Source: Monoplex corrugatus
Taxonomy: Eukaryota > Mollusca > Gastropoda > Littorinimorpha > Ranellidae
Assembly (NCBI GenBank): GCA_030674185.1
Contig: JAPXFY010000031.1
Coordinates: 40,643,532 to 40,707,531 of the forward strand
Direction of reading: 5' to 3'
Length of the DNA stretch: 64,000 nt
In this document: in pieces, positions 9,120 to 19,700 of the stretch
How positions within the stretch are numbered: the first letter of the stretch is position 1
Layout: each line of letters opens with the position of its first letter
Translations under genes and position numbers: made by a program
Notes under the pieces: model-generated
Databases searched by the model: none
What the model was told of the DNA's origin: nothing
What the model saw: only the letters and a program-made list of their open reading frames with translations

Positions 9120-9212
9120 TAACATGTTGATGGCGATCATCAACCTCTCCATGCTAAAATACTTACCTACACAATTTGTTATGAAGGTAATGATATTGTC
9201 ATACACACACAC

Positions 9213-9261
<49 letters not shown>

Positions 9262-9345
9262 GTGCTTCTTATTGGTGATCATCAACCTCTCCATGCTAAC
9301 ATACAGACCTACACAATATGTTATGGTGGTGATAATACTGTCTCA

Positions 9346-9413
<68 letters not shown>

Positions 9414-9499
9414 AACACAGTGCTTCTTATTGGTGATCATCAACCTCTCCATGCTAACATACAGACCTACACAATATGTTATGGTGGTGATAATACTGT

Positions 9500-9560
<61 letters not shown>

Positions 9561-9647
9561 CACACACAGTGTTTCTTATTGGTGATCATCAACCTCTCCA
9601 TGCTAAAATACAGACCTACACAATATGTTATGGTGGTGATAATACTG

Positions 9648-9720
<73 letters not shown>

Positions 9721-9770
9721 CAGTGCTACTTATTGGTGATCATCAACCTCTCCATGCTAAAATACAGACA
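9120..9770 (-). repeat. Tandem array: 3' edge of a coiled-coil exon plus (GT)n, left part
   Basis: Five units at about 9120, 9265, 9420, 9570 and 9722. On the minus strand each unit reads ATGGAGAGGTTGATGATCAC then CAATAAG, followed by (GT)n and an intron-like segment with CACCACCATAACATATTGTG. The real exon at 10732-10910 ends ATGGAGAGGTTCATGACCAC then CAAGAATAAG and is followed by (GT)n. Each unit is therefore a diverged copy of the last ~11 codons of that exon with its donor flank. A LINE fragment splits the array at about 9766-10305. Confidence 0.85.
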
Positions 9771-9775
9771 GCAGA

Positions 9776-10042
9776 ATGGAAGAAGCACATATCTACAAGA
9801 CCGAAAAATACGCCGGTCTTGCCAGCACCCTGAAGAAAGCAGGTCTGCGGGTCAAAATCTTCGCCATAGAGGTCGGGGCAAGAGGGTTTGTGGGCACCTC
9901 CGCTTATGATCTCATGAAACAACTCGCCATTTCTGGGAAGAAGAGGACTAGAGCCCTTAAAGCGATGGCAGAGGCAGCAGAAAGGAGCTCAAGCTGGATC
10001 TGGGCAAGGAGGAACCAAAAAAGTGAACTTCATAAGGATTAA
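9776..10042 (+). pseudogene. C-terminal fragment of a non-LTR retrotransposon polyprotein
   Basis: 88 codons. The pattern KYAGLASTLKKAGLRVKIF, then VEVGARGFVGTS, a leucine-rich stretch and EAAERSSSWIWARR, is one I associate with the extreme C-terminus of some animal LINE polyproteins, after the reverse transcriptase. No catalytic motif is present because the copy is 5'-truncated. The stop, CATAAGGATTAA, is at the equivalent position in the copy at 36220 (CATAAGGTTTAA), so this is probably the natural end. The family name is not certain. Confidence 0.6.
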
Positions 10043-10050
10043 ATTCCCTA

Positions 10051-10152
10051 CAGATGATGTGTGCCCCGTTAGCACATTGGTAAAACCGCGTACCGCAGTT
10101 CTGAAGCGCAGAATCGCCCAGGTTCGATCCCCGGCGTGGGAAAAAAAAAAAA
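10051..10152 (+). mobile_element. tRNA-like SINE module in LINE 3' region
   Basis: GTTAGCACATTGGTAAAACC resembles a tRNA A box with D loop, and GGTTCGATCCCC is a good B box. An A-rich stretch of about 12 bases follows. It begins 8 bp after the LINE stop codon. The companion LINE copy carries a different tRNA-like sequence at the same place. Confidence 0.7.
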
Positions 10153-10305
10153 TAGACAACAGCAGAAGGGCATCCAGGAGTCATGACCTGGATGTGGCCC
10201 GGCCCCCCGAGAGTGTAAGGAATTCAGGGCCGAAACACTTGTCTAAAGGGGGTTACTTCTCTGAAGACCTTCTGTTGTCTAGCTCTCCCTAGAGTTTCTT
10301 TCTAC

Positions 10306-10454
10306 CAGACCTACACAATATGTTATGGTGGTGATAATACTGTCACACACACAACACACACACAACACACAACACAGTGCTTCTTATTGGTGATCATCAA
10401 CCTCTCCATGCTAACATACAGACCTACACAATATGTTATGGTGGTGATAATACT

Positions 10455-10502
<48 letters not shown>

Positions 10503-16602: not shown

Positions 16603-16789
16603 GCCATGAAATGTATACATCAATAATTAAAGTTATAAAGAAACGGAAAGGCGCTGAAAACACATACAGCCCCGTTGTAAAAACTGACCTCGTCAACGTT
16701 CTATACAATCACATCACAGAAATGACCCCCCCCCCCCCCCCCAATCCCCAGTTAATACGACACATAGCCTCTTCTGCAGACAAACAAGA

Positions 16790-16994
16790 TTAACCCTTTG
16801 ACTCCCACACCCTATCACCAACAGCAAAAACTTAACTCCCTGCGGGAAGCTGTTGGATAGGGTTAGGGAATCCAAGGGTTAAGTTTTTGCTTTGCTAGAA
16901 TGGTTGATGGTACAGGATGCTGGTGAGCACAGAGTAAAGGAGTCAGAGGGTTAATGTTCCAATCATTGTGATGGTACAGGAGTCAAAGGGTTAA
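16790..16994. mobile_element. TTAA-flanked foldback MITE
   Basis: Begins TTAACCCTTTGACTCCCACA and ends GAGTCAAAGGGTTAA. The centre has ACTCCCTGCGGGAAGCTGTT, part of an inverted repeat with CACCCTATCACCAACAG. An additional internal end, GAGTCAGAGGGTTAA, lies at about 16940-16954. Confidence 0.75.
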
Positions 16995-17039
16995 ATCCCC
17001 ATCTCTATTATCCCAACTCATCCAGTCTATCCTCCACCC

Positions 17040-17282
17040 CCACCCCACCCCATATTACACATACACACGCACGTACACACACACGTGCACGCACGCACAC
17101 ATACAGACACACATAAGCACACATACGCACGCACACACACACACACACACGCATGAACATACATACACACACACATTCAGAGTTCCAGACAGAATATCTT
17201 TTCATATACACTTACACACACACATACACCAACACACACATACATACACCCACACGCATGCACACACACACACACACACTCA
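17040..17282. repeat. CA-rich microsatellite with exon-flank copy
   Basis: Imperfect (CA)n. At about 17176-17200 it contains TTCAGAGTTCCAGACAGAAT, a diverged copy of the intron flank just beyond the donor of the exon at 18045. Confidence 0.7.
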
Positions 17283-17659
17283 TCATCATTACTGTATGAA
17301 TTTTTTGTTAGCCTGTCAAAAAGTCCTATAGCGAATTACCTTTAAAATGTTATTTGACTTGTTCACTGTTGTGATTAGTCAATTATTAGTTTTATTTTTT
17401 TCTTCGTTTCTTCCAGATATTTATCAATTTTGTTTGTTAGTTTGTTTGTTTAAATCGTTAATTATGGTAACATTATTTGTTAGTTTTACCTTCCCCTCTT
17501 CAAAACAGTTGTTTTCTGGATCATCTTTTCTCAAATTCAAAATTGACAATTTTCAAATATTCTCTTTACTCCTCCTCTATCACCCCCTCCCCCTTTTTTT
17601 TTTTTTTTTTTGTGTGTGTCTAAAATCACTTTAGTGAATAGACATTAAATCAAAGACCA

Positions 17660-17786
17660 CCACACACACACACACTCAGAGAGCCAGACAGAATATCTTC
17701 ACACACTCACACACCAACACACACATACATACACCCACACGCATGCACACACACACACACACACTCAGAGAGCCAGACAGAATATC

Positions 17787-17849
<63 letters not shown>

Positions 17850-17882
17850 ACACATACACACAACACACACACAAACACACAT

Positions 17883-17919
<37 letters not shown>

Positions 17920-18040
17920 TATACATATATATATATATATATACATATATACATATATACATATATATATATCATCATCATCATGTATGTATATATACAC
18001 ATTCACACACACATATTCAGAAGGCCAGAGAGAACATCTT
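17660..18040 (-). repeat. Array: intron flank of an exon donor plus CA/TA microsatellites
   Basis: The intron after the donor at 18045 reads (minus strand) GTGAAAGATGTTCTCTCTGG then CCTTCTGAA. Copies at about 17675-17705 and 17762-17792 read GAAGATATTCTGTCTGGCTC, and another lies near 17176. Each is followed by a CA or TA repeat (17790-17890; 17885-17970). This is the same combination as in the arrays at 9120 and 12839: gene-edge sequence plus microsatellite. Confidence 0.75.
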
Positions 18041-18044
18041 TCAC

Positions 18045-18228
18045 CTTTACGCGCACAAGGGATAACTCATCACGGATTCTTTTGACCTCGGAGACACCCA
18101 TGTCTTGACACTGCATGTTCTCCAGGAGGACCTCCTGGTGTCTCTCATCCTCCTTCTTAAAGCCGTCAGAGTTGGCCACGTGCAGGTCCCACTTTCGGCC
18201 TGCCTGTTCGTTGTTCAACACCTTCATC
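18045..18228 (-). CDS. Coiled-coil protein gene, exon 2 of those seen
   Basis: 184 nt between the acceptor TAATCCACTTAG/GATGAAGG and the donor GTAAAG/GTGAAAG. The first G completes the split codon AT/G left by the exon at 23469-23694, giving methionine; it ends on a codon boundary, matching the phase-0 start of exon 13762. Sequence: MKVLNNEQAGRKWDLHVANS, then FKKEDERHQEVLLENMQCQD and VKRIRDELSLVRVK, which is charged, helical and coiled-coil-like. It is the only unit in the region in which this exon is complete; the 5' half is copied several times upstream at 18304-19615. The first ~14 codons are nearly invariant between exon and copies, whereas the 3' half is unique. Confidence 0.8.
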
Positions 18229-18239
18229 CTAAGTGGATT

Positions 18240-19064
18240 AGACAGACAGATGGTGATGGTGATGGTGATGGTGATGGTGGTGGTGGTGGTGATGATGATG
18301 ATGATGATGAAGCCGTCAAACAGGTCCCACTGTCGGCCTGCCTGTTCGTTGTTCAGCACCTTCATCCTGAGGGGACTGGATAAACAGATGATGATGATGA
18401 TGATGATGGTGATGGCGATGATGGTGGTGGTGGTGGTGATAATGATGATGACGATGATGGTGGTGATGACGACGACGACGACAACGATGATGATGACAAT
18501 GATGATGATGGTGATGAAGATGGTGATGATGACGATGATGGTGGTGATGATGATGACGACGACGACAACGATGATGATGACAATGATGATGATGATGGTG
18601 ATGAAGATGAAGATGAAGATGATGATGATGAAGCCGTCAGACCTGGCCACCTGCAGGTCCCACTGCTGGCCTGCCTGTTCGTTGTTCAGCACTTTCATCC
18701 CGAGGGGATTGGACAAACAGATGGTTATGGTGGTGGTGGTGCTGGGGGTGGTGACGACGAGGACGAGGACGAGGACGACGACGATGATGATGATATTGAT
18801 GATGATGATGAAGAAGAAACCGTCAGATCTGGCCACGTGCAGGTCCCACTGCTGACATGATGATGATGATGATGAGGAGGAGGATGATAACGACGACAAC
18901 GACGACGATGATGATGATGATGCCGTCAGATTTGGCCACCTGCATGTACCACTGCTGACATGATGATGATGATGGTGGTGGTGGTGGTGGTGGTGGTAAT
19001 GAAGAAGAAGAAGAAGAAGAAGAAGAAGAAGAAGAAGAAGAAGAAGAAGAAGAAGAAGAAAGAA

Positions 19065-19115
<51 letters not shown>

Positions 19116-19700
19116 GAAGAAAGAAAGAAAGAAAGGAAGAAAGAAAGGAAGAAGAAAAAGAAGAAGAAGAAGAAGAAGAAGAAGAAGAAGAAGAAGAAGA
19201 AGAAGAAGAAGAAAGAAGAAGAAGAAGAAGAAAAAGCCGTCAGATTTGGCCACCTGCATGTCCCACTGCTGACATGATGATGAAGATGATGATGACGACG
19301 ACGATGACGACGACGACGATGATGAGATGATGATGATGATGATGATGCCATCAGATTTGGCCACGTGCAGGTCCCACTGTTGTCCTGCCTGTTCGTTGTT
19401 CAGCACTTTCATCCTGATGGGACTGGAGAAACAAGATAGTAATAACGACGATGATGATGATGATGATGACGACGACGATAATGATGTCGACGACGACAAG
19501 GACGATGAAGATGACGACGACGACGATGATGACGACGACAACTACGACGATGATGACGATGAAGACGAAACAAACAGACCTGGCCCGCGAAGGCGTCCCA
19601 CTGCTGGGGTGTATGAAGATGGCAAGAAGACGACAAAGAAGATGACAAAGAAGAGGACAGAAAAGACTATGGTCGGCCAGACGCTTGGTCAGAGGGTGGA
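18240..19700 (-). repeat. Array: 5' edge of a coiled-coil exon (with acceptor) plus (GAT)n
   Basis: On the minus strand, units at about 18304-18390, 18630-18722 and 19345-19435 contain an intron end, an acceptor position and MKVLNNEQAGRQWDL (or AGQQWDL) before dissolving into (ATC)n. Shorter pieces with only the WDL-region sequence lie at about 18815-18858, 18922-18962, 19236-19275 and 19580-19615. The acceptor AG is kept in the units at 18304 and 19345 but is GG in the unit at 18630. The real exon is 18045-18228. Long serine-, isoleucine- or methionine-rich frames here are microsatellite artefacts. Confidence 0.85.
19002..19236. repeat. (GAA)n / (GAAA)n microsatellite
   Basis: Pure GAA and GAAA repeats flanked on both sides by exon-edge copies of the array at 18240-19700. 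Confidence 0.97.

What the first reader, a model, noticed from the sequence alone, without database searches (positions are those of the whole stretch)
9120..19700. Several exons of one gene are each bordered by arrays of partial self-copies tied to microsatellites
Three exons of the minus-strand coiled-coil gene (10732-10910, 13762-14023, 18045-18228) each have nearby intronic tandem arrays whose units pair an exon edge or splice-site flank with a simple repeat: exon 3' end plus (GT)n; exon 3' end plus (GAT)n; exon 5' end plus (GAT)n; intron donor flank plus CA/TA. Seen directly in the sequence. Inference: a recurrent process (microsatellite-primed slippage, template switching or unequal exchange) repeatedly captures coding edges in this gene. 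If spliced, the units could act as decoy or optional micro-exons.
Basis: partly seen in the sequence, partly recalled or inferred. Interest (0 to 1): 0.78.

Follow-up and report, generated by a model that had tools for sequence, protein, structure and literature searches.

The report
Exon ends copied into intron repeats
In a snail's gene for a cilium-motor docking protein, the ends of three exons have been copied several times into the neighbouring introns together with simple repeats, most likely by ordinary local tandem duplication that leaves the working exons whole.

Summary
The arrays are real. The gene is ODAD1/CCDC114-like, from a mollusc, probably a caenogastropod. A four-exon model (adding 23469-23662) gives 273 aa that align without gaps to Littorina saxatilis. 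Copies of exon A's 5' end (6), exon B's 3' end (4) and exon C's 3' end (8) lie in the adjoining introns. In a whole-window, both-strand search the 17 edge copies found are direct and on the side that leaves the exon whole, as tandem duplication across a splice junction predicts.

Special targeting of exon edges is not shown. Local direct copies are rampant (35-bp non-exonic probes: 57% in the first 23.5 kb, 34% overall; exon edges 3 of 13). A stricter founder null gives P=0.008, so enrichment is undecided. Exon C copies lack the original donor (0 of 8 keep it). In the A array 2 of 3 full copies keep acceptors scoring above the native one that would add 46 or 395 codons in frame. No RNA was available.

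Two of three non-Littorina relatives hint at copies of the same exon edges in other species: the lead worth following.

The parts
23469..23662 (-). first coding exon N of the ODAD1-like gene (ATG at 23662, donor CAT|GTAAGG); its 3' end has no local copy
   Evidence: 73% identical to residues 1-48 of L. saxatilis P0002; splice phase joins exon A; edge score 8
18045..18228 (-). exon A; 5' end is the founder of the A array
18229..19433 (-). A5' array: three copies of acceptor flank plus exon A 5' end (18321-18390, 18631-18724, 19347-19433) and three truncated exon-only copies (18817-18850, 18922-18953, 19233-19267) separated by GAT-type and other simple repeats
   Evidence: acceptors scored
17661..18044 (-). 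A3' flank array: repeats of the intronic donor flank with CA/TA repeats; no exon copy by the masked test
13762..14023 (-). exon B; 3' end is the founder of the B array
12846..13761 (-). B3' array: four diverged copies (33-60 nt) of the 3' part of exon B separated by GAT-type repeats
   Evidence: (three of the four)
10732..10910 (-). exon C; its last 30 nt are the founder of the C array; donor AAG|GTGTGT lies in the (GT)n
9131..10731 (-). C3' array: eight units of exon C 3' end + GT-rich repeat + ~46-nt spacer (spacer absent after the outermost unit); interrupted by an insertion of about 540 bp near 9770-10305
   Evidence: unit sequences
10923..11265 (-). 10-copy 34-bp array ending 12 bp upstream of exon C; unit holds TATTAAC, branch-point-like (consensus recalled)
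   Evidence: sequence; exon C acceptor scores -4.88

Best explanation
These are intronic minisatellites, each founded by a local tandem duplication that happened to span a splice junction of an ODAD1-like gene, and later amplified by unequal exchange or slippage. Duplicating [exon end | intron start] leaves the original exon and its donor whole and puts an extra exon end downstream in the intron; duplicating [intron end | exon start] puts the extra copy upstream. Such events are nearly neutral and survive, whereas those inside exons are removed. Simple repeats inside the units then grew or shrank copy by copy, and the exon-derived parts decayed. Shown: direct orientation, polarity, extent, divergence, shared changes, background rate of local duplication. 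Inferred: the exchange mechanism, neutrality, one capture per edge, time order.
For: Polarity: in a search of the whole window on both strands at E<=0.5, 6 A copies are upstream and 3 B and 8 C copies downstream, all direct, none inverted; the fourth B copy was found only, which looked on the predicted side and strand alone. Exon N (E<=0.5) and the main BEN exon (E<0.01) had no second hit. Changes shared by all compared copies but absent from the exon: 6 sites in A (three full copies with 22 nt of flank), 4 in B, 1 in C. Six consecutive C units are identical over 27 exonic nt while exon C differs from them at 4. Exons are the source: the exon C end is conserved with L. saxatilis and alignable to CCDC114. 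Background: 34% of 2303 non-exonic 35-bp probes have a local direct copy at score >=17 against 4% inverted; in the first 23.5 kb 57% against 7% of 788.
Against: One further B hit (68%, E=0.12, at 18008-18054) does not fit the polarity rule; I take it as chance. In B most differences are private to one copy (15 sites, 7 otherwise variable, against 4 shared), so a single B capture is weakly supported; in A 6 are private and 4 otherwise variable, in C 4 and 3. The collapsed-founder null gives P(>=3 arrays on 7 edges)=0.008, or 0.003 for 13 edges over the window, so edges may be favoured; that null omits old arrays not listed and ignores that the pattern was picked for being odd. Sites variable among A copies lean to third codon positions, 7 of 11, P=0.039, not expected for free decay after one capture; exchange with the exon is possible. 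Two proteins from other sources point to copies of the same edges elsewhere.
Confidence: 0.75

Rival explanations
1. Exon edges of this gene are preferred founders: something at splice junctions (adjacent microsatellites, transcription- or splicing-linked breaks) repeatedly starts tandem duplications there, in several caenogastropods.
For: 3 of 7 edges captured against 0.47 arrays expected under the collapsed null, P=0.008. P0030 (unnamed JGI source) reads from its exon C end into repeats of the same MERFMTTKNK-type end, 2 of the 3 copies starting at the same methionine codon as in the window; P0029 (Nucella lapillus) begins with a run of M joined to the exon B end.
Against: 3 of 7 lies below the 57% background of local direct copies; with p=0.22, allowing for unlisted local duplications (62 of 358 probes), P=0.18. 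The six BEN-gene edges, placed by tblastn ends, have no copies (scores 10-11). P0001, P0002 and P0028 show no repeated edge. Only protein-level evidence from other species; no DNA.
Confidence: 0.17
2. The copies are functional splice elements: alternative acceptors or donors, or micro-exons, kept by selection.
For: A copies at 18366 and 19413 keep AG acceptors scoring 9.5 and 8.6 against 6.5 for the real one; either would extend exon A in frame by 46 or 395 codons within a 512-aa open frame. B copies have donor-like sites near the junction scoring 6.9, 6.2, 2.2 and -4.0 and acceptor-like sites at their other end scoring 3.4-5.8; one C unit has an acceptor-like site scoring 7.5.
Against: C copies lost the original donor in 8 of 8; B copies with their best sites are not multiples of three; the third full A copy lost its AG; an open frame in all six A copies is expected by chance in 34% of simulations. 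A GT somewhere in the short stretch scanned is common by chance. Scores use recalled mammalian matrices. No RNA.
Confidence: 0.1
3. Template switching or retro-insertion scattered exon pieces next to simple repeats.
For: Simple repeats sit inside the units of all three exon-containing arrays.
Against: No inverted exon copy, edge copies in the adjoining intron on the predicted side, regular unit order in C.
Confidence: 0.04
4. Assembly artefact.
For: Arrays of simple repeats are hard to assemble; one assembly only; no reads seen.
Against: Aligned units differ from the exon by about 12-26% and most differ from each other (six C units are identical over 27 nt), and one array is interrupted by a ~540-bp insertion, unlike duplicated reads. 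Copy number could still be wrong.
Confidence: 0.03

Closest known systems
Tandem genomic duplication across an intron-exon boundary, potato RdRp gene (PMC4974935; abstract and Results and Discussion section read)
   Same: Duplicated segment crosses an intron-exon boundary in direct tandem and carries acceptor, tract and exon 5' end, as in the A array.
   Different: There one duplication made a spliced new intron, supported by reads; here there are many copies tied to simple repeats at three edges, and no RNA evidence.
IFI6 (6-16, G1P3) minisatellite with multiple splice donor sites (Turri, Cuin and Porter 1995, recalled; only its reference entry seen, in PMC2572611)
   Same: A minisatellite founded on a donor edge of an exon.
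   Different: There the repeats provide splice donors (per the title); in the C array the original donor is lost in 8 of 8 copies.
Sp185/333 sea urchin clusters: segmental duplications bounded by GAT repeats (PMC5103432; passages read)
   Same: GAT repeats at the borders of tandem duplications in a marine invertebrate.
   Different: Those units are about 4.2-7.1 kb and mostly include whole genes; here units are about 0.1-0.3 kb with partial exons.
Microsatellite families with shared flanks (Lepidoptera; PMC2887409, passages read)
   Same: A simple repeat and its flank copied together.
   Different: Those are shared among many loci and linked to RTE elements; these are local and contain exon ends.

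Membership tests
ODAD1/CCDC114-like gene | ODAD1 central coiled-coil domain (PF21773) above cut-off | tested here: met
   57.2 bits against a cut-off of 27
ODAD1/CCDC114-like gene | alignment to a full-length orthologue | tested here: met
   273 aa gapless to L. saxatilis P0002, 51% identity in the alignment; the L. saxatilis homologue of the neighbouring BEN gene has the same longest-contig length, 44,900,717, as P0001/P0002
Tandem duplication spanning a splice junction | direct orientation and a copy segment containing exon and intron flank | tested here: met
   A: exon plus acceptor flank in 3 copies; C: exon end plus a spacer matching the exon's own intron flank. For B the copied segment past the junction is short or diverged: inconclusive
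Tandem duplication spanning a splice junction | copies on the side that leaves the exon whole | tested here: met
   17 of 18 non-self hits of exons A, B and C in the whole-window search; the 18th (B, E=0.12) is taken as chance
Intron gain by tandem duplication | duplicate is spliced in mRNA | not testable with these tools
   no RNA; only site scores
IFI6-type donor minisatellite | each unit carries a usable donor at the exon junction | tested here: not met
   C array: AAG|GT lost in 8 of 8 copies
Microsatellite families (dispersed flanks) | units dispersed through the genome | tested here: inconclusive

The most novel reading that the evidence does not exclude
Splice junctions of this ciliary gene are recurrent birthplaces of microsatellite-linked minisatellites across caenogastropods. 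The same exon C end, opened at the same methionine codon, and the same exon B end have been multiplied in different species, and the arrays act as a standing reserve of splice sites (in-frame acceptors stronger than the native one) from which new exon parts or introns can arise.
Probability: 0.17. Interest if true: 0.62.

Novelty: new member of a known kind. Interest (0 to 1): 0.36.

Why it matters
It shows what look like intermediate stages between a plain intron and a duplicated splice junction: full edge copies, decayed ones, and ones with intact acceptors in frame. If spliced, they would be raw material for intron or exon gain in progress. Gene finders may also be misled by such copies, as the Nucella model that begins with a run of methionines joined to the exon B end suggests.

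Tried and rejected
Edge enrichment: the views disagree. Probe background: 3 of 7 edges against 57% in the first 23.5 kb; 3 of 13 against 34% overall (the C edge scores 17, exactly the threshold). Collapsed founder null: P=0.008 and 0.003 (unit lengths of 200 and 138 for the B and A arrays are my choice). Allowing unlisted local duplications at p=0.22 (my rounding): P=0.18; at p=0.09, 0.019. So neither enrichment nor its absence is claimed. In these probe tests simple repeats were masked, and background probes with more than 30% masked bases were dropped; no edge was dropped, the exon N 3' edge was. BEN-gene edges are tblastn ends, not proven splice sites; the small BEN exons, not yet known, counted as non-exonic.

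Selection on the A open frame: no stop in six copies, but 34% of random simulations also have none; rejected as evidence. Exonic parts of A copies more constrained than flanks: 8 of 67 against 6 of 22 variable sites, P=0.10; not shown. Third-position lean 7 of 11 in A, P=0.039, and 4 of 7 in C, untested: kept as a hint only. Dropped as chance: a 20-nt exon C match at 9983-10002 (score 12) and the B match at 18008-18054.

RNA families at gathering score and tRNAs in 9-20 kb: none. DNA of relatives: viral contigs and genome-contig scans with P0030 gave no relative. The protein searches scored only the candidates sharing most words. Paper searches. Searches ('minisatellite', 'splice donor sites', 'exon-intron boundary'; 'partial exon duplication', 'intron', 'tandem repeat') found no paper in the held library; this is not proof that nothing is in print.
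Full report
What the gene is. The protein search returned two Littorina saxatilis proteins at 49% identity, one of them named outer dynein arm-docking complex subunit 1-like. With tblastn of these I found a further exon, whose ends I set at 23469-23662. Joining exons N, A, B and C gives 819 nt, 273 codons, no stop; all four donors begin GT and the acceptors of A, B and C end in AG. It aligns to 273 residues of P0002 without a gap. 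Tblastn found no later exon in the window. The next gene, with a BEN domain (49114-51192), is 83% identical to an unnamed ENA protein, 81% to Babylonia areolata and 80% to L. saxatilis but about 50% to Physella, so the source is probably a caenogastropod (taxonomic grouping recalled). The L. saxatilis BEN homologue (P0007) and the two ODAD1-like proteins have the same longest-contig length, 44,900,717, which fits shared synteny.

The arrays. Exon C: the last 30 nt (ATGGAGAGG...) followed by GT repeats and a spacer recur as eight units (starts 10647, 10535, 10409, 9755, 9601, 9452, 9294, 9152), the unit boundary lying just before ATGGAGAGG. One unit holds an insertion of about 540 bp. Exon B: four copies of 33-60 nt of its 3' part between GAT-type repeats. 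Exon A: three copies of acceptor flank plus up to 69 nt of exon, and three truncated ones. The CA/TA array at 17661-17853 repeats intronic flank; one alignment runs 13 nt into exon A, but the masked last 35 nt of exon A have no local copy (score 10). The 34-bp array at 10923-11265 ends 12 bp before exon C.

How it probably arose. A tandem duplication across a splice junction leaves one whole exon and one extra edge in the intron. The prediction is direct orientation, copies downstream for 3' edges and upstream for 5' edges. Searching exon sequence against the whole window on both strands at E<=0.5 gave 18 non-self hits for A, B and C: 6 A, 3 B and 8 C fit; one B hit (68%, E=0.12, at 18008-18054) does not and is taken as chance. 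The fourth B copy (12846-12878) comes from one search, which looked only at the predicted intron and strand. Changes shared by all compared copies but not found in the exon: 6 sites in A, 4 in B, 1 in C; private to one copy: 6, 15 and 4; otherwise variable: 4, 7 and 3. So one capture per edge followed by amplification is enough for A and C and only weakly supported for B. The outermost C unit and the unit next to the exon differ most from the rest; six middle units are identical over the 27 exonic nt, as expected under homogenisation.

Is it special to exons? Of 2303 non-exonic 35-bp probes, 34% have a direct copy within 2 kb at score >=17 and 4% an inverted one; in the first 23.5 kb, 57% and 7% of 788. 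Exon edges: 3 of 7 in this gene (A5' 32, B3' 21, C3' 17), 0 of 6 in the BEN gene. With 70-bp probes the same contrast appears (1250 non-exonic probes; 35% direct, 4% inverted at score >=22). This says exon edges are not above background. But large arrays count many times there. If each of 9 listed arrays is collapsed to one founder unit, 0.47 captures are expected on 7 edges and P(>=3)=0.008; over the window (24 arrays, 13 edges) P=0.003. That null omits old arrays not in the list; outside all listed arrays and exons 62 of 358 probes in this part still have local direct copies, and with a combined rate near 0.22 (my rounding) P=0.18. The finding was also chosen for its oddness. I leave enrichment open.

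Splicing. With recalled mammalian matrices, the real donors score 6.9-8.9 and the real acceptors 6.5 (A), 12.7 (B) and -4.9 (C). Copies: A acceptors 9.5, 8.6 and -0.5 (AG lost); B donors 6.9, 6.2, 2.2 and -4.0 with best acceptor-like sites 3.4-5.8; C copies lack the original donor in 8 of 8, though GTs with scores up to 4.7 lie in or near the GT repeats and acceptor-like sites score up to 7.5. The two good A acceptors would extend exon A in frame by 138 or 1185 nt within the 512-aa open frame 18003-19541. That frame being open is not surprising (34% of simulations). No RNA could be examined.

Other species. A profile search (only the candidates sharing most words were scored) gave five proteins: the two from L. 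saxatilis, P0028 (ENA, unnamed), P0029 (Nucella lapillus) and P0030 (JGI, unnamed). P0001, P0002 and P0028 show no repeated edge by eye. P0030 runs from exon C through its donor into ...VHSEIFVY-MKRFMTIKNK-VNSKI... and ...VHFMTTKNE-VNSKIFVW-MERLS: three copies of the same exon end, two starting at the same methionine as the window's units, the third lacking that start and the last cut off. Its exon C matches the window's at 39 of 57 residues, so it is another species. P0029 begins MVVMMMMMMMMM joined to EKDCNLLSKEQQ, which resembles the end of exon B; it may be a gene model that used an edge copy next to an ATG repeat, or a misassembled exon. So 2 of the 3 non-Littorina sources hint at copies at the same two edges. 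These are protein strings, read by eye; the DNA could not be reached (genome search did not complete).

Verdict. A real, unusual-looking but explicable set of intronic minisatellites that include splice junctions. It is like the potato RdRp duplication across an intron-exon boundary (PMC4974935) in anatomy, without proof of splicing. The cross-species hint and the in-frame acceptors are what would lift it.

Noticed in passing
41509-43016 and 31841-32445: Two unrelated-looking arrays (43-bp and 50-bp units, + strand) carry the donor-like octamer CAGGTRAG: 31 of the 36 plus-strand CAGGTRAG sites in the window lie in them, against 3 sites in all on the minus strand. No exon was identified next to them.
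   Followed up: partly
60345-60722: Array of a 59-bp unit whose translation (ELNSKKTEVMV, by eye) resembles the reverse transcriptase at 5612-6760: tandem duplication has also multiplied a piece of a LINE-like coding sequence.
   Followed up: partly
5612-6760: LINE-like reverse transcriptase fragment (RVT_1, 104 bits) inside the 3.6-8.0 kb repeat region.
   Followed up: no
about 9770-10305: Insertion of about 540 bp in one C-array unit with a short repeated TCTG at its borders and a tRNA-promoter-like box by eye (recalled); ARAGORN and Rfam report nothing in 9-20 kb.
   Followed up: partly
10911-11265: Exon C's acceptor scores poorly (-4.88); the 34-bp array runs to 12 bp from it and may have replaced the pyrimidine tract while supplying branch-point-like TATTAAC motifs.
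   Followed up: no
P0001 and P0002 (Littorina saxatilis): Two different N-termini join at about the start of exon A, the edge that carries the A array in the window.
   Followed up: no
2-3508: 53-bp unit, about 67 copies, 92% matches, at the left end of the window, beyond exon C.
   Followed up: no
18159-19433: Sites variable among the A copies lean to third codon positions (7 of 11, P=0.039), perhaps exchange with the exon.
   Followed up: partly
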